Virus record (IMG/VR): IMGVR_UViG_3300044716_000844
Coordinates: 1-64,000 of that record
Length of the DNA: 64,000 bases
Strand: one strand, 5' to 3'
Origin: a virus
The position numbers and the translations under genes are program-made. Shown here one piece after another: positions 6,501-21,780 of this stretch. Position 1 is the first letter of the stretch. Every line of letters starts with the position of its first letter. The notes beneath the pieces are model-generated. The model was not told the DNA's origin. It did not search any database and worked only from the letters and a program-made list of their open reading frames with translations.

Positions 6501-9054
6501 TGTGCTACAAGACATATCACTTACCTTTGACGCGTTTGGCCACGTAACCGGTCGTACTATTACGTCAACCGATCTAGATCTGAGATACCCACAAACATCA
6601 TTCACAAACATTGCAGTAGCTGGTCAAAGTACAGTTATCTCTGATAGTTTGACAGATACCCTTACTCTTGTTGGTGCTGGAATTACGACTATCACCACAA
6701 ATGCTACGACCGATACTATCACTATCACTGCGACTGAAGCTGATACTCTTGCTTCAGTAACATCAAGAGGCAATACGACTACAAATAGCATTACTGTGAA
6801 TGATATAAACGCTAATAACGCTGTTATCTCAGGTGGTCTTACAGTATCAGGTGGTCTTACAGTATCAGGCGATCTTACCGTATCAGGTACTACGACATAT
6901 ATTAATACTCAAACTCTAAATGTTGGAGATAATATTGTTACGCTTAATGCTGATGTAACCGGTGCTCCTAACCAAAATGCTGGCGTTGAAATCGAGCGGG
7001 GCGATGCGAATAACGCCGTAGTACTTTGGAATGAAAGTACTGATCGTTGGACGTTCACTAACAATGGCGTCAACTACTTCAATATTCCAGTATCAAGCGA
7101 ATACGATAACTATACTTCTTGGACTATTCAAGACGGTGGCGCTAACACATACACTATCACTTCTGGCGATACTCTGCAGATTGCATCTGGTACGTATATC
7201 ACATCTCTCTTAGCAGCAGACGACATACTTACCATTAGCCACAACAACACGACTCGGTCAGATACTACATCTACAGCTTCGTCAACCTATGCTGGTACTT
7301 TCACAGCGGTTGATGGTGTTACAACGAACGCGACAGGCCATATCACCGCAGTTAACGTTAAGACTGTAACTCTTCCAGCTGGTACAAGCCTTACTACAAC
7401 TGCAGGTACCACAGCAGGTCCAGTTATTAACTCTTCGACCGGTACTGGAGTTACTATTCCTTCTGCTTCGAATACTGCGTCTGGTATCATCACAACCGCC
7501 GCGCAAAATATCGCAGGAGCAAAAACTTTTGAATCAACCATTATTGGTTCGATCAATGGCAATGCGAACACAGCAACAGCGCTTCAAACACCAAGATTTA
7601 TTAACGCTGTAAGTTTCAATGGTACTGCAAACGTTGAGATTAATACACTTCGCACCACAAGTGGTGCGAATATTATTGACGGCACAGCACAATCTCTGCC
7701 TGTTAACCATCTACAAGTTCGAGCCGCGAATACTGCACAAGATGTTCTTATCACAACTGCCGGATCTGACACAAACGTTAACCTTAGTGTTCAGACAAAG
7801 GGTACTGGTTCAATTGCTCTTGATACCGGCGTCGGAGCTGGTAACATCGATATAAAACCTGGTACCGGTACACTTCGTGTTTGGGATAATACTGCCACGA
7901 ACTGGCATTCAGTTGTAGTCGGCGAACTTGCTGCAAACAGAACCATTACACTTCCAGATGGCAACGTAACACTTCAAACCGGTACAATGGCAATCACTGG
8001 TGGTACTCTAGCTCAGTTTGCAGCTACTACCTCATCTGCGCTTGCTGGTGTTATTTCAGATGAAACTGGTACTGGATCATTAGTATTCAGCGCGTCACCA
8101 ACATTTACTGGAACACCTCTAGCTCCAACTGCAGCTGTAGGCACGAACACTACTCAGATCGCTACAACTGCCTTTGTGAACGCAGAGATTGCTAATGATA
8201 TTGTAACTAAGGCTAATATCGCGTCACCGACATTTACTGGAACACCTCTAGCTCCAACCGCAGCAGTCGGGACAAATACCACACAGATTGCTACTACTGC
8301 CTTTGTGAACGCAGAGATTGCTGCTGACATTGTAGTTAAGGCTGATGTTGCTTCTCCAACCTTTACCGGTGTAGTAACTGCTCCAAGATTAAGCCTAACT
8401 TCTACGACTGAGGCAAACACTACTTCAACTGGCCACGCTTTGCAAATTGGCCTTTTCGATAATATTCATCTCGTTATGGATAATAATGAGATTCAAGCAC
8501 GTTTAGACGACACTGCATCAACACTTAACTTAAATGTTGATGGTGGAAATGTTACAATTGGAGCCTCGACTTCTAATATCGATCTAAGAGGAACTACTCA
8601 AGCTCTCGATATTATCCCATCTGTTAACAATACTTACGATCTTGGTTCGCCTTTATCGCGTTGGGCAGTTATGTATGGTACTGCTACATCTGCACGTTAC
8701 GCCGACCTTGCAGAAAAGTATCTTGCTGATGATGAATACCCAGTAGGTACAGTAATGAGCGTTGGTGGAGAAGCCGAAGTAACAGCAGCTACACCTGAAA
8801 CTGCTCATTCAGTCATCGGTGTTGTTTCGGAAAACCCAGCTTATCTTATGAACGATGGCTTAGAAGGCGGCACCGCAATTGCACTTAAGGGTAGAGTTCC
8901 AGTCAAGATTATTGGAACCGTGAAAAAGGGAGACAGATTGACTCCATCCTCTGAGAAAGGTTTTGCAGAAGTTAATAATTCATCTGCTGCATGGACCTTT
9001 GCAATCGCGCTAGCAGATAGCGACAACGGCTTGGTGGAAGCGATTATTTTATGA
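3595..9054 (+). CDS. Giant repeat-built tail fibre-like protein (1,819 aa)
   Basis: A very long Asn/Thr/Ala/Val-rich beta protein of tail-fibre type. The N-terminus (about 1-60, including DTFASWIDTTN) looks like an attachment domain. Residues about 190-400 hold tandem units around DFNANVNIDG and NITSANTTIGDAP. Residues about 403-465 and 638-700 are a duplicated module starting SLMVRDLTATRIPYVGV. Near residue 1500 there are two PTFTGTPLAPTAAVGTNTTQ repeats, the well-known phage fibre repeat. The C-terminus from about residue 1680 (NNTYDLGSPLSRWAVMYGTA, then a YPVGTVMSVGG region) looks like a globular tip domain. No chaperone autoprotease motif was recognised. It ends in a 4-base ATGA overlap with the first gene of the modification island. 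Confidence 0.85.
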   Translation: MAKAHIYLAAGANVEATDTFASWIDTTNALVFDMGTVVLTSVSQPQPNVTVGGYTTGNAHLQGILSANTLVASNNLRGGSVSIPGDLTVVSNTIFSESPLVRISANTDNFTVNSNNTTFTSNVAINSSKTVLISAANTTINAGQLFVRTNSEFTGTRVDIDGTTFDVTSNTIFTSATFNANADVITLGFNGSDALTVNAVSDFNANVNIDGVLFTVTSTNTTIGDSGTDKFNVIAESIFSANATFNGALVNITSANTTIGDAPADRLNVNAVSDFNANVNIDGILTQTANAIFSGALVNITSANTTIGDAPTDVLNVNATSDFNANVNIDGILTQTANAIFSGALVNITSANTTIGDAPTDALNVNAVSDFNANVNVDGIFTVANSATVSNTLTVNVQANTASLMVRDLTATRIPYVGVAGEIVDSANVTFSGTNLNIIGTANVTSNANVGGTFGVTGAATLASTLAVTGVATFSSNAVFSDNDYIVVGTGADLQIYHDGSHSYITDAGTGNLKIDASQLDIQTSNSTATETMATFVRDGAVTLFHDNTARLATSGTGVSVTGTLGVSTNATVSGTLNVAGVTTLANTTVGAAPTDVFNVNAVSDFNANVNVDGILTVVNSATISNTLTVNTQANTASLMVRDLTATRIPYVGVGGEIVDSANVTFSGTNLNVIGTANVTSNANVGGTFGVTGAATLASTLSVTGTTSTTAINASGLVDVTNATDATSTTAAALKTAGGLAVAKKLYVGGIVEASANVNITGTGNRISAPDAAITNNMTVGGTATINNLTVTGTTILNTGDAQLSLNNATTAHSTVTDDLTLTNATIIGSVVPDVNNSYDIGTGSLNWKTVYANNVVANVAWSSITDKPDPVVTVTLTGDVQGTASATLTDLSSNTISISTTIQPNSVALGTDTTGNYVGTLSVTTPGVANGSSGLTFTGVAGEGTIAAIAHANTSTVTNLSVDNSAGNVLQDISLTFDAFGHVTGRTITSTDLDLRYPQTSFTNIAVAGQSTVISDSLTDTLTLVGAGITTITTNATTDTITITATEADTLASVTSRGNTTTNSITVNDINANNAVISGGLTVSGGLTVSGDLTVSGTTTYINTQTLNVGDNIVTLNADVTGAPNQNAGVEIERGDANNAVVLWNESTDRWTFTNNGVNYFNIPVSSEYDNYTSWTIQDGGANTYTITSGDTLQIASGTYITSLLAADDILTISHNNTTRSDTTSTASSTYAGTFTAVDGVTTNATGHITAVNVKTVTLPAGTSLTTTAGTTAGPVINSSTGTGVTIPSASNTASGIITTAAQNIAGAKTFESTIIGSINGNANTATALQTPRFINAVSFNGTANVEINTLRTTSGANIIDGTAQSLPVNHLQVRAANTAQDVLITTAGSDTNVNLSVQTKGTGSIALDTGVGAGNIDIKPGTGTLRVWDNTATNWHSVVVGELAANRTITLPDGNVTLQTGTMAITGGTLAQFAATTSSALAGVISDETGTGSLVFSASPTFTGTPLAPTAAVGTNTTQIATTAFVNAEIANDIVTKANIASPTFTGTPLAPTAAVGTNTTQIATTAFVNAEIAADIVVKADVASPTFTGVVTAPRLSLTSTTEANTTSTGHALQIGLFDNIHLVMDNNEIQARLDDTASTLNLNVDGGNVTIGASTSNIDLRGTTQALDIIPSVNNTYDLGSPLSRWAVMYGTATSARYADLAEKYLADDEYPVGTVMSVGGEAEVTAATPETAHSVIGVVSENPAYLMNDGLEGGTAIALKGRVPVKIIGTVKKGDRLTPSSEKGFAEVNNSSAAWTFAIALADSDNGLVEAIIL
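4477..4673 (+). repeat. 53-bp exact direct repeat within fibre gene
   Basis: Positions 4477-4529 and 4621-4673 are identical over 53 bases and lie 144 bases (48 codons) apart. They encode the GALVNITSANTTIGDAPT part of the fibre repeat. Flanking units at 4195, 4411, 4555 and 4699 start further copies of SDFNANVN, spaced 216, 144 and 144 bases. The spacing is always a multiple of three, so unit gain or loss would keep the frame. Confidence 0.9.
8092..8322 (+). repeat. Two tandem PTFTGTP-type fibre repeats, 129-bp period
   Basis: Two copies of the classic phage fibre repeat are encoded 129 bases (43 codons) apart. Bases 8101-8129 equal 8230-8258 and bases 8171-8193 equal 8300-8322, with synonymous differences in between. 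The protein unit is SPTFTGTPLAPTAAVGTNTTQ followed by IATTAFVNAEIA. Confidence 0.9.
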
Positions 9055-9551
9055 TAACAACTGATCAAGCGTATGGGTTCCTTTCCCATACGCTTCTATA
9101 TGAACAAAAGCTTGTAAAAGCTATTGATGCACAACACTTACAACATGATGTATTTAACTTCGGCGATCTTATTCGTCACAGAGCAAATGGCAGTTCAATC
9201 AAAGTTGAAGGTATGGAAAGATTCTCAACTGAGATCTTTAACCAAGGCCGATTATACGCCAAGTCTTACTTACATGACGGACCAGTCACGTGCCACATGT
9301 TCATTTCTCCTGCTGGATCACCATCCTTTCCAATGCATACCGACCCAGACCACGTCGTGATTCATTGCTGTGAAGGTATTAAGAGGATGCAGATAGTAGA
9401 TAGTACTATTGATATTCATCCTGGGTCGTACGTATATATACCATATAATACTCCGCACATAGCACTAAATGAATATGATGCTCTTACACTGAGTTTTGGA
9501 TTAGAGCGATTTTTGAAGGATAAGATGAATGAACTGGATGTTCTATCTTAA
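9051..9551 (+). CDS. JmjC/cupin-like Fe(II) oxygenase, first gene of the island
   Basis: A 166-residue single-domain protein. The H96-x-D98 pair (FPMHTDPDH) followed by G-S-Y-V-Y-I-P and P135-H136 is the metal-binding layout of cupin/JmjC-like Fe(II)- and 2-oxoglutarate-dependent hydroxylases. Such enzymes commonly hydroxylate amino-acid side chains in proteins. The start overlaps the fibre stop by four bases and the C-terminus overlaps the next gene by 23 bases, which places it at the head of a coupled chain with radical SAM enzymes. Hydroxylation of a phage virion protein is inferred. An inactive cupin used for binding is the alternative. Confidence 0.65.
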   Translation: MITTDQAYGFLSHTLLYEQKLVKAIDAQHLQHDVFNFGDLIRHRANGSSIKVEGMERFSTEIFNQGRLYAKSYLHDGPVTCHMFISPAGSPSFPMHTDPDHVVIHCCEGIKRMQIVDSTIDIHPGSYVYIPYNTPHIALNEYDALTLSFGLERFLKDKMNELDVLS

Positions 9552-10548
9552 AACTACCGAAACATGTAATCTGAATTGCAGTCATTGTTTCACGAATGGT
9601 ATTAATGGTGCTAAGGTGTATTTTGATCCGGTCAAAGTATCTAACTGGATTCATGCATTCCATAAAGAAAAATTTAAACCAGATGATACTGCACACTATG
9701 AGTTCCATGGTGGCGAACCGTTTTTAGTACCAGTATCACAGATGAAATATGTCGTTGACTCTTGTAAGCATCTGTCACCGAATCAATCTTTTGGCGCAAC
9801 AACGAATCTTGTCTATAAGTTAAAACAAGAGCACATCGATTTTATCAAAAACGATCTTGGTGGTAGACTAGGTACGTCATGGGATCCTAAAATTAGATTC
9901 GCAAATTCTAAGCAATACAGGCTGTGGTACGATAACCTGAAAACTTTGCAGCGTGAAGGTATACATATCAAGCTGTTTATTAGTGTCACGAAACAGACGA
10001 TTGCTTACAAGCCTATCGTATTGCTGAGATGGATTCGCAGATTAGGTGTACAAGAAGTGTCATTCGAAAGGCTTACAAGCAACGGATCGGCAAAGCTATT
10101 TCCAGAGATATTTCCAACGAACATTGAACTCGACAACTGGTTCCTTGAGATGCACAATGATACAGTTAAATACGATGCTCGAGGCTGGTTCGACAACGAA
10201 AACCTAGAAAATGTATATGCAAAATTTGAAAACGGTTATAACTCATGCGGTACCTTTTGTCGTGATTGTGAAGAAAAGATTTTTACACTTAACGCAGACG
10301 GTACTATCTCAGGATGTCCAAATGCTGCACCCGAGTTTAACTTTGGATCGATAAACGATTCTATCACGAGTATTATAAATAGTCCAAGAAGGATTCTCAA
10401 TATCGTTGAAGAACGAAGTAGAAATCCTAAGTGCTATTCTTGTCCGGTGTTTAAATACTGTAACGGTGATTGTCACCAGCTTGAATGGCAAGGAGATGTT
10501 TGTGGAGCTCCGAAGAGTTTAATGAAGCTATTGGCTAAGGTAGGATAA
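9529..10548 (+). CDS. Radical SAM/SPASM protein 1
   Basis: A 339-residue radical SAM enzyme. C13-x3-C17-x2-C20 (CNLNCSHC) binds the catalytic 4Fe-4S cluster and GGEP at 61-64 is the SAM-binding motif. The C-terminal SPASM domain is complete, with Cys at 240, 244, 247, 263, 302, 305, 311, 315 and 325, as expected for two auxiliary 4Fe-4S clusters. This architecture is typical of RiPP maturases and anaerobic sulfatase-type peptide modifiers. The start at 9529 has AAGGA at 9516-9520; an in-frame ATG at 9538 is possible. The candidate substrate gene begins two bases after its stop. The substrate is inferred from neighbourhood only. Confidence 0.9.
   Translation: MNWMFYLKTTETCNLNCSHCFTNGINGAKVYFDPVKVSNWIHAFHKEKFKPDDTAHYEFHGGEPFLVPVSQMKYVVDSCKHLSPNQSFGATTNLVYKLKQEHIDFIKNDLGGRLGTSWDPKIRFANSKQYRLWYDNLKTLQREGIHIKLFISVTKQTIAYKPIVLLRWIRRLGVQEVSFERLTSNGSAKLFPEIFPTNIELDNWFLEMHNDTVKYDARGWFDNENLENVYAKFENGYNSCGTFCRDCEEKIFTLNADGTISGCPNAAPEFNFGSINDSITSIINSPRRILNIVEERSRNPKCYSCPVFKYCNGDCHQLEWQGDVCGAPKSLMKLLAKVG
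10374..10381 (+). promoter_or_regulatory. Intragenic TATAAATA late promoter candidate
   Basis: An exact match to the T4-type late promoter core lies inside radical SAM gene 1, about 170 bases before the CHxx-repeat gene. If used by gp55 polymerase it would give the candidate substrate its own late transcript. The match also spells in-frame codons (Ile-Ile-Asn), so chance is possible. Confidence 0.4.
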
Positions 10549-10550
10549 GT

Positions 10551-11201
10551 ATGGCAACCCTAACAGATAATATAAACGCCCAGAACATTGTTGACCGATT
10601 CGCTGATTACGTAGTTGCGAGCGGGAATGCTAGCATTGTATTCGGTACAAATGCTTTACCCTTTGGCACGTACTCATCGTATTTTCCAGCTATTTTTGGC
10701 GGTACTACAACCGCCGGTAGAGCTATAGCTATTACCGGCACAAACCTAGGCGGATCTGGTTCAGAAATTACTGCTGCTACTATTGTAAGTGTTCTTCGCA
10801 CAGAAACTGCTGCGTATACACGGCTTCGTAAATTAAGAGCAGTATTAAATATCACTGGAACCGGATTGCTTACGGGCCAGCCAAACGACGGCGTGTCTAG
10901 TGTCGACACCATCGTTAACACCCGTGATGATCTCGGGCCAATTTTCGGTCAAGGCCCAGGTATCATTTATGATGAAACATCAAAGGCTAACTTAAACACT
11001 ACCTATGTGCAAACACTCGCTGCAACTGCAAACACCGGTATAGTGACAAGCAGTAGTATTACTACGGCTAACCTAGAAACGTTCTTCACAAACCTAAGAA
11101 CTGCTTATGGCACAGCGAGGGATACCATCCATACAGAACAAGTCAACGTTTGTCACGCATCTTGCCATGCCAACTGCCATAGCTCTCGGGGCCGTAGATA
11201 A
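10551..11201 (+). CDS. Candidate modified virion protein with CHxx-repeat C-terminus
   Basis: A 216-residue protein with two unlike parts. Residues 1-195 are Thr/Ala/Gly/Asn-rich, contain no Cys and resemble a small phage structural or fibre protein. The last 19 residues, VNVCHASCHANCHSSRGRR, contain three consecutive CHxx units and then RGRR; all three Cys of the protein are there. It sits immediately after a radical SAM/SPASM gene and is followed by five more radical SAM genes. CXXX-repeat peptides matured by radical SAM enzymes are a known type, and the layout suggests a follower tail or core presented on a structural scaffold. Substrate status is inference. Alternatives are a metal-binding tail or an adhesin tip. 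Confidence 0.8.
   Translation: MATLTDNINAQNIVDRFADYVVASGNASIVFGTNALPFGTYSSYFPAIFGGTTTAGRAIAITGTNLGGSGSEITAATIVSVLRTETAAYTRLRKLRAVLNITGTGLLTGQPNDGVSSVDTIVNTRDDLGPIFGQGPGIIYDETSKANLNTTYVQTLAATANTGIVTSSSITTANLETFFTNLRTAYGTARDTIHTEQVNVCHASCHANCHSSRGRR
11151..11198 (+). other. Triple CHxx repeat plus RGRR: putative modification site
   Basis: Codons at 11151, 11163 and 11175 each begin a C-H-x-x unit (CHAS, CHAN, CHSS), followed by R-G-R-R and the stop at 11199-11201. The three units use different codons (TGT CAC, TGC CAT, TGC CAT, with different third and fourth codons), so the regularity is at the protein level rather than from a fresh DNA duplication. Confidence 0.6.
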
Positions 11202-11211
11202 GGATTATACT

Positions 11212-11940
11212 ATGAATATTATAACAACTAAAGCGCCTATTGGTATCGAAGACCTGAAAGTTTATTTTCAAGACAAAAACACCAAATATCTTATTGACTA
11301 TGCAGCGTCTGATTTAAAGGGCGAAAAGTTACTGATCTATTTAGGTAATCTAGATTTACCGTGCGATATTATCTACGATAACAATGAGTCTCTTTACGAG
11401 ATGGTTGAAGCTTATTTGAAATTTAACCATATCGTAAATATAGAGTCGCTTGAGATCAGAGTTATAGATATGCTATTACAAAGAAAAAATCTCAAGAAGC
11501 AATTTACTCCAGAGATTGTTGAAAAGTTGGGCGATTTACTTGATCAATGGACAAACAAACTCGAGTCATTACTGCTGTACAACATGTACATTCTCAATGA
11601 TGAGAATATCAAAGAGAGTATTCAAGAATATCAACACAATGATACAGACAGCACGGTAGGTATAAACTTTGTCAGTCTGTTAAAGCATGAAGAGTTTTAT
11701 GTATTCTTTGAATCCACCGATGAATCAAATTTGGCATACTACTCTAAATACTTCAACGACTATATGTTTAAGGGCCAAAATCTTTACTCCTACTGGGCAA
11801 ACGAGAATAATCCAATGTTCCTATTAACATGGGGTATAGCAAATGGAGTTGTGACTAAGGAAGAATATAATAACAGTATCATGTCATCGTTGATTGAAAT
11901 TCAAAACGACATTCAGGAGTTAGAAAAATGTTCCACTTAA
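11212..11940 (+). CDS. Unrecognised island protein A
   Basis: A 242-residue soluble protein, beginning MNIITTKAPIGIEDLKVYF. I chose the ATG at 11212 because TAAGGAT at 11199-11205 gives a well-spaced ribosome binding site; an upstream in-frame ATG at 11107 would overlap the CHxx region by almost 100 bases. The protein is acidic, predicted helical and rich in Tyr, Asn and Leu, with one Cys near the middle and one near the end. No family or catalytic motif is recognised. It overlaps the next gene by 13 bases. Its position between the candidate substrate and the other enzymes suggests an adaptor, substrate-recognition or chaperone role, but that is only context. Confidence 0.65.
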   Translation: MNIITTKAPIGIEDLKVYFQDKNTKYLIDYAASDLKGEKLLIYLGNLDLPCDIIYDNNESLYEMVEAYLKFNHIVNIESLEIRVIDMLLQRKNLKKQFTPEIVEKLGDLLDQWTNKLESLLLYNMYILNDENIKESIQEYQHNDTDSTVGINFVSLLKHEEFYVFFESTDESNLAYYSKYFNDYMFKGQNLYSYWANENNPMFLLTWGIANGVVTKEEYNNSIMSSLIEIQNDIQELEKCST

Positions 11941-13085
11941 TCGGCAAGGTATATCTTGCTCCAGATTTTACTATTGACATGGCACATGATCGAGTTATAA
12001 TTTCTGAAGAAAATGGATTTGCCGCCTTTGAGTTTATTGAAAAGATCATGGGTGGTACTTTACATAAGTTTGGCCACACGGTCGAAGACGTAGTTGGTGA
12101 AGACTTTGTTCAATTTTTCGAAGACCTAATCGAATCTTCAAGCCAAACCGGTAGATCTGTTTACATCTACGCGGATGCGGTGGCTCTTCCAAAAATACAA
12201 GCGTTATGGTTTAAGCTTACGCTCGCTAATATTGATGTTGACACTTGTTTTAAGATATATAACGCGAACGTGCAAAAGTATAACCTGTTTTATAAGACTT
12301 CTTTGATCTCGAGCTCAGGATCAAGATACATAACTCACTCTATTGATCCAGAGTTAATTAGACCTGAACTGAATAGTGTTATAGATCTAGACCTAGATGA
12401 ATCCGTCCGAACTGCATTTTGTGAGAAGCATAAGAATATTCTTGGTATCGAGTATTTGCTTGCCAACTATATTTACAATGGTACCTTTAAAGACGAGCTA
12501 AAAACTTCACTTAAAAGAATAATGAGAAAGCATTTTGACGGTATTCTCTTAGAATACAAGGGCACTTTCCTATCTTATTATACTAATGATGATTTTGCAG
12601 AAAGAGTTCAATTAGAGCATAGGTATTCGTTTGACAATCTTTCTGATTTGTCCGAGGATAATAGTGATATCGTAGAGTTCTTTTTGTCAAAACGTTTATA
12701 TAAGACCGTCGAGTTGGCGAAGCATTCTTCGAATAGCAACTTTGTATTTGAAAACATGACCGAAGATGACGTAGAAACACTTCGAATGTTCACCTCTGCT
12801 TTAGGGTCACATTATAGTTTTGATACTTCTACTCCAGATCATACAAGTGTGTCACCACTACTAAGAGATGGATATAAGTGGCAATTTTTAGATTGTATTC
12901 GTGGTGAATTCACTGATGCTTTGCTCGACAGCATGATAGAAGTTGAAGCTTCGATCAACTATGCAGATGGTATATTCTATAACGTTCTTCTCGAGACAGT
13001 AAACGGATTTACCATTCAACATATTCTACGACTCTACAAGAGTGGCGATACAGATAAGCTGAGAAAATTTATAGTTTTTGAATAA
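11928..13085 (+). CDS. Unrecognised island protein B
   Basis: A 385-residue soluble protein, N-terminus MFHLIGKVYLAPDF, followed by a region with a repeated GHTVEDVVGEDF-like character and a long helical remainder. It has few Cys and no visible nucleotide-binding, methyltransferase or metal motif. The start overlaps the upstream gene by 13 bases and the stop shares a base with the next radical SAM start, so it belongs to the same coupled chain. The N-terminal 130 residues look alpha/beta, which would suit a binding or scaffold domain. No function can be assigned. Confidence 0.65.
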   Translation: MFHLIGKVYLAPDFTIDMAHDRVIISEENGFAAFEFIEKIMGGTLHKFGHTVEDVVGEDFVQFFEDLIESSSQTGRSVYIYADAVALPKIQALWFKLTLANIDVDTCFKIYNANVQKYNLFYKTSLISSSGSRYITHSIDPELIRPELNSVIDLDLDESVRTAFCEKHKNILGIEYLLANYIYNGTFKDELKTSLKRIMRKHFDGILLEYKGTFLSYYTNDDFAERVQLEHRYSFDNLSDLSEDNSDIVEFFLSKRLYKTVELAKHSSNSNFVFENMTEDDVETLRMFTSALGSHYSFDTSTPDHTSVSPLLRDGYKWQFLDCIRGEFTDALLDSMIEVEASINYADGIFYNVLLETVNGFTIQHILRLYKSGDTDKLRKFIVFE

Positions 13086-14137: not shown

Positions 14138-14648
14138 ACTACTCGATAATATTGATGTTGTTGCTGATGATATACCAACTGTGTATCCGTACGTTCCTCG
14201 ACTGTGCAAAGAAACCGGCCATATGTTAATATGGTGGGGAACACGAGATACTGATCCGGATATTGCTGATGACTGTTTCAAAGTAAAGTCAGAACCACAG
14301 TGGATTACTTGTAATGAATTGTGGAAGATTGAAAAAGCGGTTGTCTTAATTTGGCCGTATGAGGATGAGATTATCCTAGGAACCGTAAAATATCCTGGTT
14401 ACATGAAGAGGCGCTCGAGCGTAGAAATACGAAGATGGCTTCGAAAAGTATGGGCAGACGTTGTAGTCATGTTCGGTGACAAGAGAATGATATGTCCATC
14501 AGCTACTTATCTTAATTCTATACATATGTATATGAACCAAATGACAATATCACACGAAGCTTATCATCATAAAATGATGAAGAAGTATGGCTTTAAACGG
14601 TATAACGAAGATTTTTGGGTACGAGAAGCGAATGCAAAAACTAATTGA
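14058..14648 (+). CDS. Unrecognised island protein C, weakly GNAT-like
   Basis: A 196-residue protein. The ATG at 14058 is preferred because GGAGG at 14047-14051 lies six bases before it; an in-frame start at 14031 is less well placed. The C-terminus (HHKMMKKYGFKRYNEDFWVREA) has the flavour of the last strands of a GNAT acetyltransferase, where a KxGF element is common, and similar phage proteins occur. The acetyl-CoA binding loop is not clearly visible, so the assignment is weak. It overlaps both neighbours and is therefore translated with radical SAM proteins 2 and 3. Confidence 0.6.
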   Translation: MSASTNLRTDILTMYDYTEASNPLNVKLLDNIDVVADDIPTVYPYVPRLCKETGHMLIWWGTRDTDPDIADDCFKVKSEPQWITCNELWKIEKAVVLIWPYEDEIILGTVKYPGYMKRRSSVEIRRWLRKVWADVVVMFGDKRMICPSATYLNSIHMYMNQMTISHEAYHHKMMKKYGFKRYNEDFWVREANAKTN

Positions 14649-15684
14649 TTTTACACTTGATATCGCTCACGGCTGTAAATTCAGTTGCACGGGTTGTCAT
14701 ATCGATAAGATAAGCGGACGTTTGCCGTCTTCAGCAGAATTCGATCAGCTAGATAAACTTGTAGACGAAATGAATTCTAACGGCTTTAATGCTATGAATC
14801 TTGCAATCGGTCCAACAGATATCATGACTGCTGAAAACAGAGATGATATACTTCTGCATCCCAGAATCAAAAACTTTGCTAATAAATTTATGAAAACCAC
14901 AATCAACTGCGCCTTCTTAGAACCGCATGAAAGTGATTATGTAGATTTAGGCAAAAAGCTGGATTGGCTGCTTCATGGTAAGATGGTAAAATTTGTAATA
15001 CCATTTGAAGCATTTCACATTGATAACCAATCTTACATTGACAAGATCCGCGAAAAGGTCATGTTGACTGTAGAGAATATGCCGAACGTTATTCACACAA
15101 AAACATATCTCAATGTCAACTACGAAACAACGCAAATATACGACAGGCAGAATAACACTAATCTAACTGCTGAATTGATACTCAAACTATATAACTCAGA
15201 TTTGTTAGACGGACTTGATGTTGATCTAATCTTACCGCATCCACGTTCTAATCTAAGAAATAAGTTTATTGGTTCAGAATTTATCAAAGCAGCTAAGACG
15301 CTGAAACAAACTCTGATTGATGCCCGCGAAAAGTACGGTATAGATAATATATCGATAGCAGAAATAGATGCAGAAGAAGGTAAAGATTGGGATATAATTT
15401 ACAAAACTGGTAAGTTATACATGCCGCCGTTTCTACTTGAAGGCTTAGCATGTTTTGATAAAGTATTTGAGATAGACAGAGAGTGGAGTCTAGCTGGACT
15501 ATACGACTTTTACAACAACAGTTTTGTAAAGCAAGTTGATTGGGCATCTACGGTAACTGAATGCAAAGATTGCAGATTTGTGGGATTGTGTGCGGAGCGC
15601 GGTATACATAATCTTATGATGATAACCGGTACACAAGATTGTATCAGCCCAGCGAAAGATATAGGTGGAAATAGAATATGGTGA
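14632..15684 (+). CDS. Radical SAM protein 3
   Basis: A 350-residue radical SAM protein starting at the ATG at 14632, 17 bases before the upstream stop; an in-frame ATG at 14587 would make an implausible 62-base overlap. C15-x3-C19-x2-C22 (CKFSCTGC) binds the catalytic cluster. The usual GGE motif is replaced by the AIGPTD region. The C-terminus has a short Cys group (TECKDCRFVGLCAERG, then a final Cys about 20 residues on), which could bind one auxiliary cluster. The middle part is less like the SPASM enzymes nearby, so substrate or chemistry may differ. Function within the island is inferred. Confidence 0.85.
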   Translation: MQKLIDFTLDIAHGCKFSCTGCHIDKISGRLPSSAEFDQLDKLVDEMNSNGFNAMNLAIGPTDIMTAENRDDILLHPRIKNFANKFMKTTINCAFLEPHESDYVDLGKKLDWLLHGKMVKFVIPFEAFHIDNQSYIDKIREKVMLTVENMPNVIHTKTYLNVNYETTQIYDRQNNTNLTAELILKLYNSDLLDGLDVDLILPHPRSNLRNKFIGSEFIKAAKTLKQTLIDAREKYGIDNISIAEIDAEEGKDWDIIYKTGKLYMPPFLLEGLACFDKVFEIDREWSLAGLYDFYNNSFVKQVDWASTVTECKDCRFVGLCAERGIHNLMMITGTQDCISPAKDIGGNRIW

Positions 15685-16274
15685 ATGGTGACATGACTAA
15701 CATGAGATTTACCAAGGACACGATGCCTGTCTTTGAATACGAGATACCCAAAGAGCTTATTGACAACGCATTCTTAGGTGCAATCGAACTTTTTGTGGCA
15801 AACGAAACACTCAAAGAGAATTTAGATACTGAGAGTAGATACATCATCGCTAATAAAAACATTGACGGTTCGAAGATATCAACAAAGGTAAATTTCGTTT
15901 CGACTGTTAAAAGTCATATCAAGAATTCTAAGATAGGCGAACTTGCTAACTATATTGAAAAGCTTGTTAAGCAAATGTCGTTAGATCACTACTCAGCCGA
16001 CGTCAATTTTAAAGTACACAACTCGACAGTGTTGATGTATAAAGGCGGAGATAATATCGGAAAGCATAACCACTTTCCTTATTGTTTTGTGGTGGCGATC
16101 TACCTGAATATGCCAGAGAATGCTTCTCCTATTAGCTTAGGCGAGAGTTTAGAAATACACCCGAAAGCAGGGACGTGCTTAATATTTCCTGGTAATCTAT
16201 ATCACGAGGTCAAACAAACTGAGGCTGATCGCATCATGATTACTATGGATATAAAAGTCGTTATAGAGGATTAA
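15678..16274 (+). CDS. 2OG-Fe(II) oxygenase-like protein with HxH motif
   Basis: A 198-residue protein of the prolyl-4-hydroxylase-like fold. H130-x-H132 stands where HxD is usual, followed by the strand VVAIYLNMP, then GTCLIFPGNLYHEV with distal H176, and R185 for binding 2-oxoglutarate. HxH occurs in some phage and bacterial 2OG oxygenase families, so activity is not excluded. Starts at 15678 or 15693 are both possible; the first overlaps the upstream stop by 7 bases. It sits between radical SAM genes 3 and 4. Likely role: hydroxylation of a peptide or protein, by inference. Confidence 0.75.
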   Translation: MVNGDMTNMRFTKDTMPVFEYEIPKELIDNAFLGAIELFVANETLKENLDTESRYIIANKNIDGSKISTKVNFVSTVKSHIKNSKIGELANYIEKLVKQMSLDHYSADVNFKVHNSTVLMYKGGDNIGKHNHFPYCFVVAIYLNMPENASPISLGESLEIHPKAGTCLIFPGNLYHEVKQTEADRIMITMDIKVVIED

Positions 16275-16275
16275 A

Positions 16276-17940
16276 ATGCTTAATATCTATTGGTTAAATC
16301 CACCACTGTATACCAGAAACTATTATCCAGATATCGCGTGGATGAATTTCAACACCTATATGCCTGAATACAATTGGGTTAAGCCGATCATCGATTGGGA
16401 AAGTATAGTCACTGAAGAAATGATTTTAGACGACATTTTCAAACAAGACATTAGTGTTCTGTGTATCAGTACATACGAATGGAACACAAACCTATGTCAC
16501 GAGATTGCCAAACGAGTCAAGCAAAGAAATCCTAACATCGTCGTAATCAAAGGCGGGCCACAACAAGGGCACAACGAAAAATTCTTTGACGAACATCCGT
16601 ATATAGACTATCTATGCCATGCCACGGGTCATGGAGAGTTGTTCTTAAAAGAATTCTTGAAACAGTATGTGGAACATGGTAAGGTCGTTAGTCCTGAGAA
16701 GGTGACTCATCTAATATCAAGAGACTATGTTGGTCCTGAACTAAAAATAAAGTACTCGTATCCAGAAGAATCGTCAATAGAAAAGAATATGACATACTTG
16801 ATTGAAGTCGGTATGGCATGTGCTTCTCGTAATGCTCAGACAACTATGTTATATGAGACGACGAGAGGGTGCCCGTATTCGTGTGTTTACTGTGAGTGGG
16901 GTGGTGGAACTGGTAGTAAAGTATCAGCAAAATCTGTTGCGCAAATCAAAAAAGAATTGGAAATCATATCCCTTCTGCGATTTGAATCGTTAGAGATAAT
17001 TGACGCTAATTTTGGTATTCTCAAACGGGATGTCGAAGTTGCCGAGTATATCGTAGAGCTATCAAAGAAGTTTGGATATCCGAAAGAAGTGATGTTGTAT
17101 GGATTGGCTAAGACTACTTCAGAAAAGAAAGAAAAGATCTTAGACATCTTCCATGAAGCAGGATTGATGCAAGCTTATTTTATTGCCACGCAAACTCTAA
17201 ATCCTGACGTCATGGGCATAATCCAAAGAACTGACGTATCAGTTGATGAACACATGAGACTAGCTAAAAAGTACAACGAAAAATACAATAGTGCAGCATC
17301 ATTAGAGTTTATTCTAGGACTTCCAGGATTCACTATAGAAGAATTCTATGAACAGATGAACTATTTTCAAGAACTCCACAGTGTAAACGGGTGGAGAAAG
17401 ATGCGTAACATCCTTACAATGTTGCCCAATACTCCACTCGCAGATCCCGAATATATTAAAAAACATAGTATTAAGGTGTCATTTGCCGGGTCAATGGAAA
17501 ATGAAGAGAACGATACTGTTGGCATATCCAATAGCATTCTCAATAAACATAAGGGCCGTATGTCGTTTGTGACTGAAACGTTCAGTTTTAGTTCGGAAGA
17601 ATGGAAGGAAATGTTCATATTGAATAGACTGCAAAGAGAGATTGGTCCTCGGATTAAGAGTCATATCAAGGCAGATAAACTATTCAAATACGTTTATGAA
17701 CAATTCGAAAAAGACGAAAGTGGAGTGTTTAAGAGAGTAAAGCAACACCTTGATGACTTGGTGGACAACAAACTGGTTGACAAAGACGCTCTTATGGTAG
17801 ATAATAGGCTTATCGAAACCGTGATATACGAAGATTTTATACTGCCAAACAAAGAGCTATTCGCTGACATTGATTTTGATTACGAGATGGCGCATGATGG
17901 AAACACATTGATGCATTTGAAATTAGAAAATGACATATAA
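16276..17940 (+). CDS. B12-binding-domain radical SAM enzyme (radical SAM protein 4)
   Basis: A 554-residue protein with the architecture of class B (cobalamin-binding) radical SAM enzymes. Residues about 1-130 form a Rossmann-like B12-binding domain (VLCISTYEWN, IVVIKGGPQQGHNEKFF, IDYLCHATGHGELFLKEFL). The radical SAM core follows with C199-x3-C203-x2-C206 (CPYSCVYC). A C-terminal extension of about 150 residues is unassigned. Family members methylate unactivated carbons or do other chemistry on peptides and small molecules; some do not need the DxHxxG motif for cobalamin, and it is not seen here. The gene starts two bases after the oxygenase stop and ends in an 11-base overlap with the next. 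Confidence 0.85.
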   Translation: MLNIYWLNPPLYTRNYYPDIAWMNFNTYMPEYNWVKPIIDWESIVTEEMILDDIFKQDISVLCISTYEWNTNLCHEIAKRVKQRNPNIVVIKGGPQQGHNEKFFDEHPYIDYLCHATGHGELFLKEFLKQYVEHGKVVSPEKVTHLISRDYVGPELKIKYSYPEESSIEKNMTYLIEVGMACASRNAQTTMLYETTRGCPYSCVYCEWGGGTGSKVSAKSVAQIKKELEIISLLRFESLEIIDANFGILKRDVEVAEYIVELSKKFGYPKEVMLYGLAKTTSEKKEKILDIFHEAGLMQAYFIATQTLNPDVMGIIQRTDVSVDEHMRLAKKYNEKYNSAASLEFILGLPGFTIEEFYEQMNYFQELHSVNGWRKMRNILTMLPNTPLADPEYIKKHSIKVSFAGSMENEENDTVGISNSILNKHKGRMSFVTETFSFSSEEWKEMFILNRLQREIGPRIKSHIKADKLFKYVYEQFEKDESGVFKRVKQHLDDLVDNKLVDKDALMVDNRLIETVIYEDFILPNKELFADIDFDYEMAHDGNTLMHLKLENDI

Positions 17941-18526
17941 ACAATACGACTTATGGACTGCAAACATAGAAATTCATGATGACTTTATCACAGATAAGGT
18001 TCTATATGAGCAGCTGATCAAAGAATCATCTATCAGTAAAACGATAGATGGTCAAAATGTTTTGGGTCTAACACCAGCACAAAAACAAATCCACAATTTG
18101 GTTACGATGGTGGTCGTTAGTTATTGTATGCGGAATGGTATCGACTATGACAATCTGACGTTTACAGAACTGCAGAAGGGTTCTTTACACAAGTATGATC
18201 AAACCATGGTGAGTAATCACTTATATGAACCGCACGACGATCGAGTCGAGGGATCTTTCTTGACAGCTCTTTACTATATCGATAGTTCATATGATAAATA
18301 CTCTTCTAATTGGGTCGGAGGTGAACTGACCATTTACAAGAATCTGACGTTCGCTGAATACCCCAACAACTCTATCAATATCCTGCCCAAGCAAAACAGA
18401 TTGGTGATCTTCCCGGGATTCAATGTCCATAGGGTCAAACCGTACTTCGGTGACAAGCCAAGAACATCACTAGTGTTTGGATGGTCAGTTAACGATCAAC
18501 CACAAACCGAATCATTGACTGTATAA
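17930..18526 (+). CDS. 2OG-Fe(II) oxygenase, prolyl-4-hydroxylase-like
   Basis: A 198-residue protein with a complete facial triad: H102-x-D104 in YEPHDDRVEG, distal H167 in FPGFNVHRVK, and R178 for the 2-oxoglutarate carboxylate. The spacing and the GGELTIYKN strand match P4H-like phage hydroxylases. Members hydroxylate protein or free amino acids and need Fe(II), oxygen and 2-oxoglutarate. It overlaps the B12 radical SAM gene by 11 bases and is followed after one base by radical SAM gene 5. The target is unknown; the island's CHxx protein is a natural candidate. Confidence 0.85.
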   Translation: MTYKQYDLWTANIEIHDDFITDKVLYEQLIKESSISKTIDGQNVLGLTPAQKQIHNLVTMVVVSYCMRNGIDYDNLTFTELQKGSLHKYDQTMVSNHLYEPHDDRVEGSFLTALYYIDSSYDKYSSNWVGGELTIYKNLTFAEYPNNSINILPKQNRLVIFPGFNVHRVKPYFGDKPRTSLVFGWSVNDQPQTESLTV

Positions 18527-18527
18527 T

Positions 18528-19565
18528 ATGGACCTTATTATTAAGCCGACTGAAGTGTGTAACTTCAAATGCACATTCTGTTCATCAACGAAGATATCAG
18601 AAGAACATACGTCTCAACTTGATCTTGAACGCGTCTTTCGTTTTCTTAAACGATATCCGAACACAAGCACTATCATCGTGAATGGTGGTGATCCTCTGAT
18701 GATGAGTCCGGCATATTACTGGAGACTCATCAAACACCTGGATGATAATAACTATCCTGCTACTATATCTCTTACGACTAATCTTTGGCCGTTCTATAAG
18801 AATGTGTCAAAGTGGAAACAACTGTTCCTGCACCCGCGCATAGGTGTAGCCACGTCTTTTCAGTATGGGAATGGAAGACTCAAAGGTGATTACTCAGTGT
18901 TCACCGAAGAAGACTTCTGGAATGCTTCGAATGCAATGCTTGAGCATATCGGATACCGCCCAACCTTTCTTGCAGTGATTACGGAAGAGAATGAAGATAC
19001 TGTTATACAGACAGTTGAGTTAGCTAAAAGAATGGGTGTAGTCTGCAAAGTCAACTATGCCATGGCAAGCGGTGATCAAGATAAGCCATATAGACTATCA
19101 AAGATCTATGAGAAATATGTTGAGATCTGGAAAGCTGGTTTAGCGCCGTGGGAACATAATACTCAGCAAATGTTAAAGCGGCTGAAAGGCGAGAATACTA
19201 TATGCCCGCAAAGCCGAACATGTGACTCAAACATTCGTAACATTAATCCTGAGGGTGATTACTATTCATGTGGTGCTTTCGGTGACGATCGTGATAAGGA
19301 GATTGACTTCGAATACGAGATGGCCGGTGGATTTTCTACTCCTTTGACGGACGACCTGAATCTACTATCGCTTAAGAAGTCATGCTTTACTTGCCCGATG
19401 TTCGAGATATGTAATGGTTGCAGAAAGACTGTGAAAGACCTAAAGAACTTTGGAATGGTTGAAGATCATTGTAAACATATGAAACAACTTGCACCAGAGA
19501 TTATTCGTGCGAATGGTCTTAATTTAGAACCAACACCTTATGTTGACGAATCATGTATACAGTAA
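18528..19565 (+). CDS. Radical SAM/SPASM protein 5
   Basis: A 345-residue radical SAM enzyme. C11-x3-C15-x2-C18 (CNFKCTFC) and GGDP at 53-56 define the core, and SPASM-type Cys at 226, 232, 248, 286, 289, 295, 298 and 315 define auxiliary cluster sites. The DYYSCGAFGD and CFTCPMFEICNGC segments are the clearest SPASM signatures. It is a second full SPASM enzyme in the island and differs from protein 1 in almost all of its sequence, so a different residue or step is likely. It overlaps the next radical SAM gene by 13 bases. Confidence 0.9.
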   Translation: MDLIIKPTEVCNFKCTFCSSTKISEEHTSQLDLERVFRFLKRYPNTSTIIVNGGDPLMMSPAYYWRLIKHLDDNNYPATISLTTNLWPFYKNVSKWKQLFLHPRIGVATSFQYGNGRLKGDYSVFTEEDFWNASNAMLEHIGYRPTFLAVITEENEDTVIQTVELAKRMGVVCKVNYAMASGDQDKPYRLSKIYEKYVEIWKAGLAPWEHNTQQMLKRLKGENTICPQSRTCDSNIRNINPEGDYYSCGAFGDDRDKEIDFEYEMAGGFSTPLTDDLNLLSLKKSCFTCPMFEICNGCRKTVKDLKNFGMVEDHCKHMKQLAPEIIRANGLNLEPTPYVDESCIQ

Positions 19566-20464
19566 GTATCAATCCTTCTTACTTCTGCAACTTTAGCTGT
19601 GACTTCTGTTATCTGACTGAATCACAACTTCGTGATTCAAAGAAAATAGAATTGAACCGGCTTGACGAACTTTTGAGTCAAGTGCCGTCGATCGAGCATA
19701 TCGATTTATATGGCGGTGAGATTGGTGCTTTGAAAAAAGACTACTTCTATGCAATGAAAGATGTTATTCGAAAGCATTATAACGGAGAGATCAACGTAAT
19801 TACGAATTACTCTATGATTCATGAAGGGTTCTATGCCGACGATGTGTATCTTTCAGTGTCATACGACTTTGCTGCTCGTGAGAAGTCTGAGCTCGTTTAT
19901 AAGAACATGCTTATGTCTCCGGTTCCTATTGCTGTACTCATACTTGCATCGCCTCAAGTTCTGAAGATGGATGTGGAAGAGATGATTAGCATGCTAAATC
20001 TTTGTTCCTCTATCGATTCAGTTGAGATCAAACCATATTCAATTAATCAGGCAAACTCGTATAATGTTACTCATCGAGATTACGAGAACTTTGTTATAAA
20101 GTGGCTAACCGCGTCTACACCCAAACGGTTTCGTTTTATAAACGAGGATCATATTCAAGATTCGTACGAAGGACTGTATAATGCGTTCTCTGATAACCAC
20201 GTCTACATAACACCGAACGGAAAATTTGGTGTACTTGAGTTCGATAAATATGACAAGGAGTACTTCTTAGAACTCGAGTCTTGGAACGAATACATTCAAT
20301 GGACTCAGAAAGAAAAGAACGAACTCAGCGATATATGTAAACAGTGTAAGTATTACGGTGGCTGTTTAACAGAACATTACCGATATGTCGAGAATTTAGA
20401 AAATAGTTGCAATGGTTACAAGGGTCTTTTAGATTGGTACGGTGAATGCAAGAGTGGAAAATAA
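19553..20464 (+). CDS. Radical SAM protein 6
   Basis: A 303-residue radical SAM protein, the shortest of the six. C12-x3-C16-x2-C19 (CNFSCDFC) and YGGE at 53-56 are intact. The C-terminus has C262-x2-C265-x5-C271 and C286, a reduced SPASM or twitch pattern that would hold one auxiliary cluster. It follows radical SAM protein 5 in a 13-base overlap, so the two may be made in equal amounts or work together. Substrate is not evident from sequence. Confidence 0.87.
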   Translation: MYTVSINPSYFCNFSCDFCYLTESQLRDSKKIELNRLDELLSQVPSIEHIDLYGGEIGALKKDYFYAMKDVIRKHYNGEINVITNYSMIHEGFYADDVYLSVSYDFAAREKSELVYKNMLMSPVPIAVLILASPQVLKMDVEEMISMLNLCSSIDSVEIKPYSINQANSYNVTHRDYENFVIKWLTASTPKRFRFINEDHIQDSYEGLYNAFSDNHVYITPNGKFGVLEFDKYDKEYFLELESWNEYIQWTQKEKNELSDICKQCKYYGGCLTEHYRYVENLENSCNGYKGLLDWYGECKSGK

Positions 20465-20841
20465 AGCAAGAGATATATCACAGACTTAACAATGAATATC
20501 GAGATGATTTAAATAACGTTGATATCGTTATAAGTAATGAGTACAACAATATCATTCGTCACTTCCACGAAAAAGTCGATCAGTGGATATATCCGGCAAA
20601 GAGTTATTTTGTAGCTGTATGTTATGCCAGTTGGATAGCAGAAGATTATAACGAAGATCTCATTGAACTTCTTAGAGATCCCATGTTACTTGCAGGTAAT
20701 GATCCATACTTTAAAACATACGATGAAGATCCTGAGACTTATGATAAGATATTAAGAGATATTGAGTTGCCATTAAAAATGAATGGCATGGTGCCAGATG
20801 TAAAGGAATATTATGATGAAGAGATTGCCTTTCGGATTTAA
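20446..20841 (+). CDS. Unrecognised island protein D
   Basis: A 131-residue acidic, helix-rich protein (MQEWKIKQEIYHRL at the start, NDPYFKTYDEDPETYDKI further on). It has a single Cys and no visible catalytic motif. Its start lies within the last 19 bases of radical SAM gene 6 and its end overlaps the next oxygenase by 29 bases, so it is part of the coupled chain. Its size and charge would suit a peptide-recognition partner or chaperone, but nothing in the sequence proves it. Confidence 0.6.
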   Translation: MQEWKIKQEIYHRLNNEYRDDLNNVDIVISNEYNNIIRHFHEKVDQWIYPAKSYFVAVCYASWIAEDYNEDLIELLRDPMLLAGNDPYFKTYDEDPETYDKILRDIELPLKMNGMVPDVKEYYDEEIAFRI

Positions 20842-21385
20842 CGATCTTTACCCGACTTCTGTGTATCTTTCGAAGATTAGTAAAGAAGACTGTGATACTA
20901 TATTAACTGGTGTGATGTCGAATGAAGTTGTTACATCGCCAAGTGATGATGACGCGTCACTTATCATACATAAGATTCCGAGACTGAAAGAACTTGCTGA
21001 AGAAAAGTTTGCTGAGTATCTTGATAAGGTATATGGTATAAGCATATACGACTATAACTTTAAATTTAAGTCATGGTTAACTGGTAACGGCGATGGGTAT
21101 AGTATGGATACACATAACCACGCAGGTGCACCGTTCGTTTCAGTCTTTTACATTATGGCGGAACATACTGATAAGGGTGGAGAAATTGTTTTCAACGATC
21201 CTCGAGTAAATGCAAACCGCGGATATACACTTGAGTTTCAACCACAGTTTAAGCCAACTGTTCATATGCCACAGACTGGTGATGTTGTAATTTTTCCAGG
21301 GTTTCTTTATCATCAAGTGAGAAAATATAATGCAAACCTTCGTATCGCTCTTCCAGTAGATCTATTCTTATACCATCAAGACTAA
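20813..21385 (+). CDS. 2OG-Fe(II) oxygenase-like protein, HxH type, last gene of the island
   Basis: A 190-residue protein of the phage 2OG oxygenase family with the HNHAGAPFVSVFYI element: H101-x-H103, then KGGEIVFNDPR, then FPGFLYHQVRKY with distal H167 and R177. This resembles the family in which HxHP precedes a SGVYY strand. AAGGA at 20803-20807 precedes two adjacent ATG codons (20813 and 20816); either may be used. It closes the chain: 61 bases of noncoding DNA with a late promoter follow. It and the gene at 15678 are the two HxH members of the island. Confidence 0.8.
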   Translation: MMKRLPFGFNDLYPTSVYLSKISKEDCDTILTGVMSNEVVTSPSDDDASLIIHKIPRLKELAEEKFAEYLDKVYGISIYDYNFKFKSWLTGNGDGYSMDTHNHAGAPFVSVFYIMAEHTDKGGEIVFNDPRVNANRGYTLEFQPQFKPTVHMPQTGDVVIFPGFLYHQVRKYNANLRIALPVDLFLYHQD

Positions 21386-21779: not shown

Positions 21780-21780
21780 C

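What the first reader, a model, noticed from the sequence alone, without database searches (positions are those of the whole stretch)
9051..21385. Phage-encoded protein-modification island with six radical SAM enzymes
Seen: six proteins with intact CxxxCxxC motifs, at least two with full SPASM cysteine sets and one with a B12-type domain, interleaved with a JmjC-like and three 2OG-oxygenase-like proteins, all in one coupled chain. Known: such enzyme sets mature RiPPs. Inference: the phage modifies a protein of its own, probably in the virion, as the island lies between fibre genes. I know of no described phage system of this size, but I could not search.
Basis: partly seen in the sequence, partly recalled or inferred. 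Interest (0 to 1): 0.93.

Follow-up and report, generated by a model that had tools for sequence, protein, structure and literature searches.

The report
Phage enzymes that modify a fibre-linked protein
A virus of bacteria carries a set of radical enzymes next to a small protein of its own whose tail end is an almost unchanging cysteine-histidine repeat, almost certainly what they modify; the same set sits beside attachment-fibre genes in hundreds of phage contigs and in predatory bacteria, which suggests an undescribed way of chemically finishing a part used to attack bacterial cells.

Summary
The island is real and intact: six radical SAM (rSAM) proteins, a cupin/JmjC protein and three 2OG oxygenases, all coupled. 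Its only cysteines form the C-terminus CHASCHANCHSSRGRR, which makes it the likely substrate. A DNA-pattern scan of viral contigs hit its limit at 119 loci; nearly all matches end exactly at a stop codon, on 168 distinct proteins of 10 sequence families. In the reverse test, 74 of 74 rSAM1 loci with enough DNA carry this gene. The core is four rSAMs plus an unknown helper; other enzymes are optional, and the middle of the island is swapped even between close relatives. A fibre gene lies just upstream in 72 of 75 phage loci. The module is also chromosomal in about 10% of Bacteriovoracia genomes (predatory group), beside prepilin-S74 and fibre-tip-like genes (co-occurrence p = 4e-11). In phage Atu_ph07 the substrate is the first gene of an MS-defined virion-protein cluster. 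No paper found describes this. Best reading: a RiPP-like C-terminal modification of a fibre-associated protein used in attachment or entry. The chemistry, virion location and role are inferred.

The parts
3595..9054 (+). long repetitive tail-fibre-like protein (1819 aa), directly upstream; its stop overlaps the start of the cupin gene (ATGA)
   Evidence: PHROG tail fibre 4549, E 8e-4; a homologue of its C-terminal 220 aa ends just upstream of rSAM1 in 72/75 phage loci
9051..9551 (+). cupin / JmjC-like protein, putative tailoring oxygenase
   Evidence: Pfam Cupin_2 30.5 bits and JmjC_2 26.3 bits, both above cut-off; found in 34/54 loci
9529..10548 (+). rSAM1, radical SAM/SPASM enzyme, core member
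   Evidence: CxxxCxxC and full SPASM cysteines; TIGR04085 above cut-off; nearest NCBIfam PapB / DynA / anaerobic sulfatase maturase, none near cut-off; 54/54 loci
10551..11201 (+). putative substrate protein (216 aa): folded body plus disordered modified tail
   Evidence: only Cys are 201, 205, 209; C-terminal motif conserved in 168 distinct homologues; AF2 pLDDT 82 with last two 10-residue blocks 57 and 49
11151..11198 (+). C-terminal core CHASCHANCHSSRGRR (residues 201-216), predicted modification site
   Evidence: C/H/R columns invariant in all pattern-found members; unconstrained columns also conserved (S/N -13, S/N -9, S -5, G -3); TGT/TGC and CAT/CAC used about equally at invariant positions; all 74 loci chosen by rSAM1 alone carry it
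11212..11940 (+). helper protein B (phrog_20767), always directly after the substrate; listed ORF 11107 is probably mis-started
   Evidence: 54/54 loci; AF2 pLDDT 90, no significant PDB fold match
11928..13085 (+). unknown protein C385
   Evidence: 47/54 loci; no Pfam family above cut-off
13085..14137 (+). rSAM2, radical SAM enzyme, core member
   Evidence: 54/54 loci; only 31% identical to the L214 copy although flanking genes are 85-94%
14031..14648 (+). unknown protein D205 (start uncertain)
   Evidence: 24/54 loci; part of the swapped middle cassette
14587..15684 (+). rSAM3, optional radical SAM enzyme (start possibly 14632)
   Evidence: CxxxCxxC and CxxCx5C; 6/54 close relatives, but repeated several times in other module types
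15678..16274 (+). 2OG-Fe(II) oxygenase a, optional
   Evidence: PF13759 27.6 bits (cut-off 27); 1/54 loci
16276..17940 (+). B12-binding radical SAM, putative C-methyltransferase, optional
   Evidence: Radical_SAM 41.5 bits, B12-binding 30.1 bits; KedN5 family 3e-49; 24/54 loci
17930..18526 (+). 2OG-Fe(II) oxygenase b, optional
   Evidence: PF13640 37.1 bits; 17/54 loci
18528..19565 (+). rSAM5, radical SAM enzyme with SPASM-like C-terminus, most conserved core member
   Evidence: 53-62% identical in Burkholderia, Agrobacterium, Sinorhizobium and Pseudomonas phages; 52/54 loci
19553..20464 (+). rSAM6, radical SAM enzyme, core member
   Evidence: 52/54 loci
20446..20841 (+). unknown protein E131 (phrog_20737)
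   Evidence: 44/54 loci
20813..21385 (+). 2OG-Fe(II) oxygenase c, optional
   Evidence: PF13759 40.5 bits; 28/54 loci
21447..25235 (+). tail genes downstream: fibre-assembly-like protein (21447-21779), small protein, fibre (22026-25235)
   Evidence: PHROG 3304 'L-shaped tail fiber protein assembly' 4e-25; PHROG 356 and 11011

Best explanation
The island is a self-contained protein-finishing module. Its substrate is the 216-aa protein 10551-11201: a cysteine-free folded body (carrier/leader) with a disordered C-terminal core, CHxS-CHxS-CHxS-RGRR. rSAM1 (SPASM), rSAM2, rSAM5 and rSAM6, helped by protein B, install radical modifications on the Cys/His/Ser array (most likely thioether or C-C crosslinks; inferred). 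Swappable enzymes (B12-rSAM, rSAM3, 2OG oxygenases, cupin) add methyl or hydroxyl groups (inferred). The finished protein joins the attachment-fibre apparatus, where the modified tail contacts or helps breach the envelope of the Gram-negative target cell (inferred). Bacteriovoracia use the same module beside prepilin-type fibre proteins. Shown: substrate motif, constant linkage, core enzyme set, fibre linkage. Inferred: the chemistry, virion location and role in entry.
For: Forward scan for CHxxCHxxCHxxRxRR, with no stop in the pattern: nearly all hits end exactly at the stop codon; only about 4 of 119 loci look like chance. Reverse test by rSAM1 alone: 74/74 loci with enough downstream DNA have the motif gene; the 6 others end at most about 300 bp after rSAM1. 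168 distinct substrates in 10 sequence families share the tail, with conservation at the protein level. In the isolate collection the same phages carry rSAM1, rSAM2, rSAM5 and the substrate (Phosso's substrate read). Tail predicted disordered, body folded. Fibre gene directly upstream in 72/75 phage loci. Bacteriovoracia: rSAM1 in 13/129 genomes, fibre-tip-like protein in 15/129 as a single copy, 11 shared, p = 4e-11, adjacent. S74 and N_methyl domains confirmed by Pfam. Atu_ph07 gp170 is the first gene of the MS-defined virion cluster CDS 170-215. dN/dS below 0.1 where measurable.
Against: No chemistry is shown; the rSAMs are far below the cut-off of every curated maturase family. No RRE, protease or exporter is seen in the phage module. 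The substrate body has no PDB fold match. Virion presence rests on a cluster boundary quoted in the text of one paper; its supplementary table could not be read. Some Bacteriovoracia cores lack internal cysteines (CHSSHSSHSSHSSRGRR), so a purely Cys-based chemistry cannot be general. The bacterial substrates show no obvious signal peptide, so their route outside the cell is unclear.
Confidence: 0.72

Rival explanations
1. The Cys/His tail is a metal-binding fibre tip (as HxH motifs bind iron in known phage spikes). The enzymes load or protect it or act elsewhere, and the tail itself is not covalently modified.
For: CHxxCHxxCH and the variant CHSSHSSHSSHSS are good metal ligands; known phage tips bind Fe through HxH (from memory, not tested). 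Fibre genes adjoin the module.
Against: Metal loading does not need four conserved rSAMs plus tailoring oxygenases. The SRGRR end and the small spacer residues are conserved as well as the ligands. rSAM1 and the motif gene are linked in 74/74 loci. Metal binding after modification remains possible.
Confidence: 0.15
2. A classical secreted RiPP: the core is cleaved off and released as a small toxin or signal acting on competitors or neighbouring cells.
For: rSAM/SPASM enzymes next to a Cys-rich C-terminal core; methyltransferase-like and oxygenase tailoring; an ABC transporter pair follows the module in one bacterial locus.
Against: No protease or exporter in the phage module or in the other bacterial loci examined. 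The carrier body is large (124-364 aa), folded and retained. The location is inside tail-fibre genes.
Confidence: 0.08
3. An auxiliary metabolic island acting on a host small molecule, as suggested for the rSAM cluster of Campylobacter phages.
For: PMC2853527 suggests metabolic benefit for CP220; the B12-rSAM resembles KedN5, a natural-product methyltransferase.
Against: B12-rSAM is absent from 30/54 loci while substrate and core rSAMs are constant. The substrate motif is under protein-level selection independent of its body.
Confidence: 0.04
4. Anti-defence or antiviral radical enzymes (viperin-like).
For: Weak pVip matches, up to 32 bits.
Against: Viperin scores are 25-29 bits against a cut-off of 180; no kinase partner seen; the constant linkage to a Cys/His-tailed protein and fibres is unexplained.
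Confidence: 0.01

Closest known systems
CXXX-repeat peptide radical SAM maturase systems (NCBIfam TIGR04115)
   Same: Target with Cys at every fourth residue next to a radical SAM enzyme.
   Different: TIGR04115 is not among the best matches of the window's enzymes. Here the repeat is CHxS with a fixed SRGRR end on a folded carrier, four or more different rSAMs, in lytic phages. The family's targets are known to me from the family name and memory only.
SPASM peptide maturases (PapB ranthipeptide, DynA dynobactin, anaerobic sulfatase maturase)
   Same: Same enzyme superfamily; best HMM matches of rSAM1; nearest solved structure anSME 4k37.
   Different: 55 bits against a PapB cut-off of 340; different substrate and several rSAMs per substrate.
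Campylobacter phages CP220/CPt10 and Aeromonas phage 332-Vera rSAM clusters
   Same: Many rSAM genes in a myovirus, in 332-Vera within the structural cluster (PMC2853527, PMC12390700).
   Different: No substrate was reported in the passages read. CP220 gave no tblastn match to rSAM1, rSAM2, rSAM5 or the substrate, although it is in that collection. 332-Vera did not appear in those searches and may belong to this system.
Bdellovibrio MAT chimeric fibres (PMC10769870)
   Same: Predator surface fibres built from phage-tail parts, some ending in S74 domains, used in prey recognition.
   Different: MATs start with a signal peptide and beta-rich domain; the passages searched do not mention radical SAM enzymes. 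Here the fibre proteins have prepilin N-termini and sit beside the rSAM module.

Membership tests
RiPP (ribosomally made, post-translationally modified peptide) | Gene-encoded precursor with a conserved core, adjacent to modifying enzymes | tested here: met
   C-terminal core in 168 distinct precursors; next to rSAM1 in 74/74 loci
RiPP (ribosomally made, post-translationally modified peptide) | Covalent modification of the core | not testable with these tools
   needs mass spectrometry
RiPP (ribosomally made, post-translationally modified peptide) | RRE / PqqD-like recognition domain | tested here: not met
   no such Pfam or NCBIfam match in the island proteins scanned; protein B has no significant PDB fold match; common but not required in RiPPs
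RiPP (ribosomally made, post-translationally modified peptide) | Leader cleavage and export genes | tested here: not met
   none in the phage module; ABC pair in only one bacterial locus
SPASM radical SAM | CxxxCxxC plus C-terminal SPASM cysteines | tested here: met
   rSAM1 TIGR04085 38.3 bits above cut-off 27; other members partial
CXXX-repeat maturase (TIGR04115) or PapB ranthipeptide maturase | Score above curated cut-off | tested here: not met
   PapB 55 of 340 bits; TIGR04115 not in the top 25 for any window protein scanned
Viperin / pVip | Score above NCBIfam viperin cut-off | tested here: not met
   25-29 of 180 bits
Virion protein | Detected in purified particles | tested here: inconclusive
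   Atu_ph07 gp170 is the first gene of MS-defined virion cluster CDS 170-215; peptide table not readable

The most novel reading that the evidence does not exclude
Lytic phages and predatory bacteria share a modular machine that builds a radically modified Cys/His tail on a fibre-associated protein and uses it to bind or breach Gram-negative envelopes: a post-translationally synthesised chemical tip on a virus, diversified by swapping tailoring enzymes.
Probability: 0.42. Interest if true: 0.95.

Novelty: new variant of a known kind. Interest (0 to 1): 0.88.

Why it matters
It offers a concrete, testable answer to why some phages carry clusters of radical SAM genes, called 'highly unusual' in 2010 and 2025 papers: they finish one specific phage protein. 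Relatives of rSAM1 occur on at least 361 viral contigs, so it is widespread. Radical chemistry on a virion-associated protein, shared with predatory bacteria, would add a new layer to host recognition and entry and a source of new peptide-modifying enzymes. Isolated phages carry it, so the test is feasible now.

Tried and rejected
A 25-aa core alone as a tblastn query found nothing, probably because of the low-complexity filter, so patterns were used instead. The 257-aa and 126-aa substrate classes had no match in the phage collection. Ralstonia phage records tried by accession (AP017925, AP014927, NC_028899) are not held. The substrate body and helper B have no significant PDB fold match; body matches in BFVD are phage proteins of unknown function, including Atu_ph07 (296 aa, the length of gp170) and a 178-aa protein of the same length as the pPa_SNUABM_DT01 substrate. 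A profile of the bacterial fibre tip did not match the phage fibres, so fibre linkage in phages and bacteria is by context, not proven homology. Viperin/defence and small-molecule readings were rejected as above. CP220 was read only over its first 50 kb; whether its cluster has a Cys/His-tailed substrate was not settled. ABC transporters beside one bacterial module were absent from the others and set aside.
Full report
What is there. The island at 9051-21385 reads as described. Six intact radical SAM (rSAM) ORFs carry CxxxCxxC, and five of them also carry a C-terminal CxxCx5C of SPASM/twitch type; one has a B12-binding domain. A cupin/JmjC protein and three 2OG oxygenases are interleaved, with overlapping or abutting genes throughout. 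The window is a T4-like myovirus (sheath, portal, major head protein, terminase), 64 kb of a 95.6-kb virus record. The genes are not decaying: against the nearest relative L214, measurable genes have dN/dS of 0.03-0.08 with synonymous sites near saturation.

The missing piece. Directly after rSAM1 lies ORF 10551-11201 (216 aa). Its only three cysteines are in the last 16 residues, CHASCHANCHSSRGRR. No Pfam or NCBIfam model matches it. Four other isolate phages read here, with very different bodies (178-306 aa), carry the same end in the gene after cupin and rSAM1: Burkholderia S13, Agrobacterium Atu_ph07, Sinorhizobium Phosso and Pseudomonas pPa_SNUABM_DT01. Burkholderia FLC6 and FLC8 have close homologues.

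Forward test. All but about four loci place the motif at the exact C-terminus of an ORF. Together with later loci this gives 168 distinct proteins in ten families by blastp of their bodies. Positions left free in the pattern are conserved too: S or N at -13 and -9, S at -5, G at -3. Cys and His codons at invariant positions vary freely between synonyms, so selection acts on the protein. Bodies are cysteine-poor (0.25% of residues).

Reverse test. Eighty loci chosen only by similarity to rSAM1 (361 contigs encode a relative) were searched for the motif. 74 have it. The other six end at most about 300 bp after rSAM1.

Core and accessories. In 54 loci with at least 9 kb downstream, rSAM1, rSAM2 and helper B occur in 54, rSAM5 and rSAM6 in 52, C385 in 47, E131 in 44, cupin in 34, 2OGc in 28, B12-rSAM in 24, 2OGb in 17, rSAM3 in 6 and 2OGa in 1; rSAM counts are 4 to 6. 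Between the window and L214 the outer genes are 84-94% identical (the substrate itself 74%), while C385, rSAM2 and the B12-rSAM are 25-31% and four genes (D205, rSAM3, 2OGa, 2OGb) have no counterpart. So the middle cassette is swapped. A second arrangement has tandem ~126-aa substrates and several rSAM3-like enzymes.

Structure. AlphaFold2 on 52 sequences gives a confident body (mean pLDDT 82) and a low-confidence C-terminal tail (last two blocks 57 and 49). No PDB fold matches; the matches in the viral library are phage proteins, among them Atu_ph07 and a 178-aa protein. Helper B is confidently predicted (pLDDT 90) with no significant PDB match.

Link to fibres. A homologue of the C-terminal part of the window's upstream fibre ends within 2.5 kb upstream of rSAM1 in 72 of 75 phage loci. 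Tail-fibre genes follow downstream. In Atu_ph07 the authors report that most virion proteins found by MS are encoded in three clusters, one being CDS 170-215 (PMC6102473). The motif protein is gp170 and 215 is the major capsid protein. The numbering agrees with the record (gp141 is the lysin in both). That gp170 itself was detected is an inference.

Predatory bacteria. The scan of bacterial genomes gave mostly chance hits but also about a dozen real ones, several in Bdellovibrionota. Three full regions are chromosomal: flanking genes include thiolase and acyl-CoA dehydrogenase, pyruvate kinase and QueG-like protein, and cytochrome c oxidase (assigned by eye). rSAM1 occurs in 13 of 129 Bacteriovoracia genomes, one on a 4.15-Mb contig. 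Beside the module sits a prepilin-like protein ending in Peptidase_S74, the tail-spike chaperone (N_methyl also detected in several), and a 180-220-aa fibre-tip-like protein. The tip-like protein is single copy, occurs in 15 of 129 genomes and shares 11 with rSAM1 (Fisher p = 4e-11). In three of the four genomes that have the tip without rSAM1, the tip sits beside another multi-rSAM array; two of these were read and carry a different Cys-rich protein ending CNCHNNCGCHY or CTCHNDCGCHY. Bacterial cores vary: CHGNFPPPCHGSRGRR, CHTNVPTPPPCHASRGRR, CHSNHCSHSNHGSRGRR, CHSSHSSHSSHSSRGRR. The constants are the first Cys-His and the H-x-S-R-G-R-R end. On a midpoint-rooted rSAM5 tree the phage sequences form one clade inside bacterial diversity (V_L298 and V_L206 there are bacterial). 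That suggests transfer from predators to phages, but the root is uncertain.

Mechanism. Shown: a conserved substrate tail, its constant linkage to rSAM1, a four-rSAM core, and a fibre context in two unrelated settings. Inferred: the enzymes crosslink or otherwise modify the Cys/His/Ser array; the optional B12-rSAM and oxygenases methylate or hydroxylate it; SRGRR is a recognition or follower element; the product serves attachment or envelope penetration. The nearest solved relatives of rSAM1 are anaerobic sulfatase maturases and peptide-modifying rSAMs. All curated maturase families are far from their cut-offs, so the chemistry cannot be named.

What is known. rSAM clusters in phages were noted as highly unusual without a substrate in the passages read (PMC2853527, PMC12390700, PMC7029224). 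Literature searches for phage rSAM, RiPP, SPASM and Bdellovibrio found no description of this system. The library is open-access only and holds no bioRxiv preprints, so absence is not proof.

Noticed in passing
L334 12364-12927, L336 6805-7314: A second type of multi-rSAM array (seven rSAM-like ORFs in L334) beside the same fibre-tip-like gene in Bacteriovoracia, with a different Cys-rich protein ending ...CICNSDCNCNAVCNCHNNCGCHY.
   Followed up: partly
L310 14447-18115, L305 12654-14323, L324 11575-13298: Prepilin-like proteins ending in the Peptidase_S74 tail-spike chaperone domain, paired with a fibre-tip-like protein: apparently pilus-displayed phage-type fibres in predatory bacteria.
   Followed up: partly
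L006, L030, L038, L072, L074 and others: Tandem pairs of ~126-aa substrates with identical tails, followed by several rSAM3-like enzymes: a distinct module class.
   Followed up: partly
window 11928-18526 versus L214: The middle cassette of the module is replaced while the outer genes are 84-94% identical, as expected for diversification of tailoring chemistry.
   Followed up: yes
L331 4310-4918, L325 13561-14169: Substrates whose tails have one or two Cys and mostly His (CHSSHSSHSSHSSRGRR, CHSNHCSHSNHGSRGRR), so Cys is not needed at every repeat.
   Followed up: no
window 11107-11940: Mechanical ORF start is too early; the likely start of helper B is 11212.
   Followed up: yes
L036 (257-aa ORF): Substrate with four CH repeats (CHSNCHSNCHSNCHTNRSRR) instead of three.
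   Followed up: no
rSAM5 tree: Phage rSAM5 sequences form one clade nested among Bdellovibrionota sequences with midpoint rooting, suggesting transfer between predatory bacteria and phages.
   Followed up: partly
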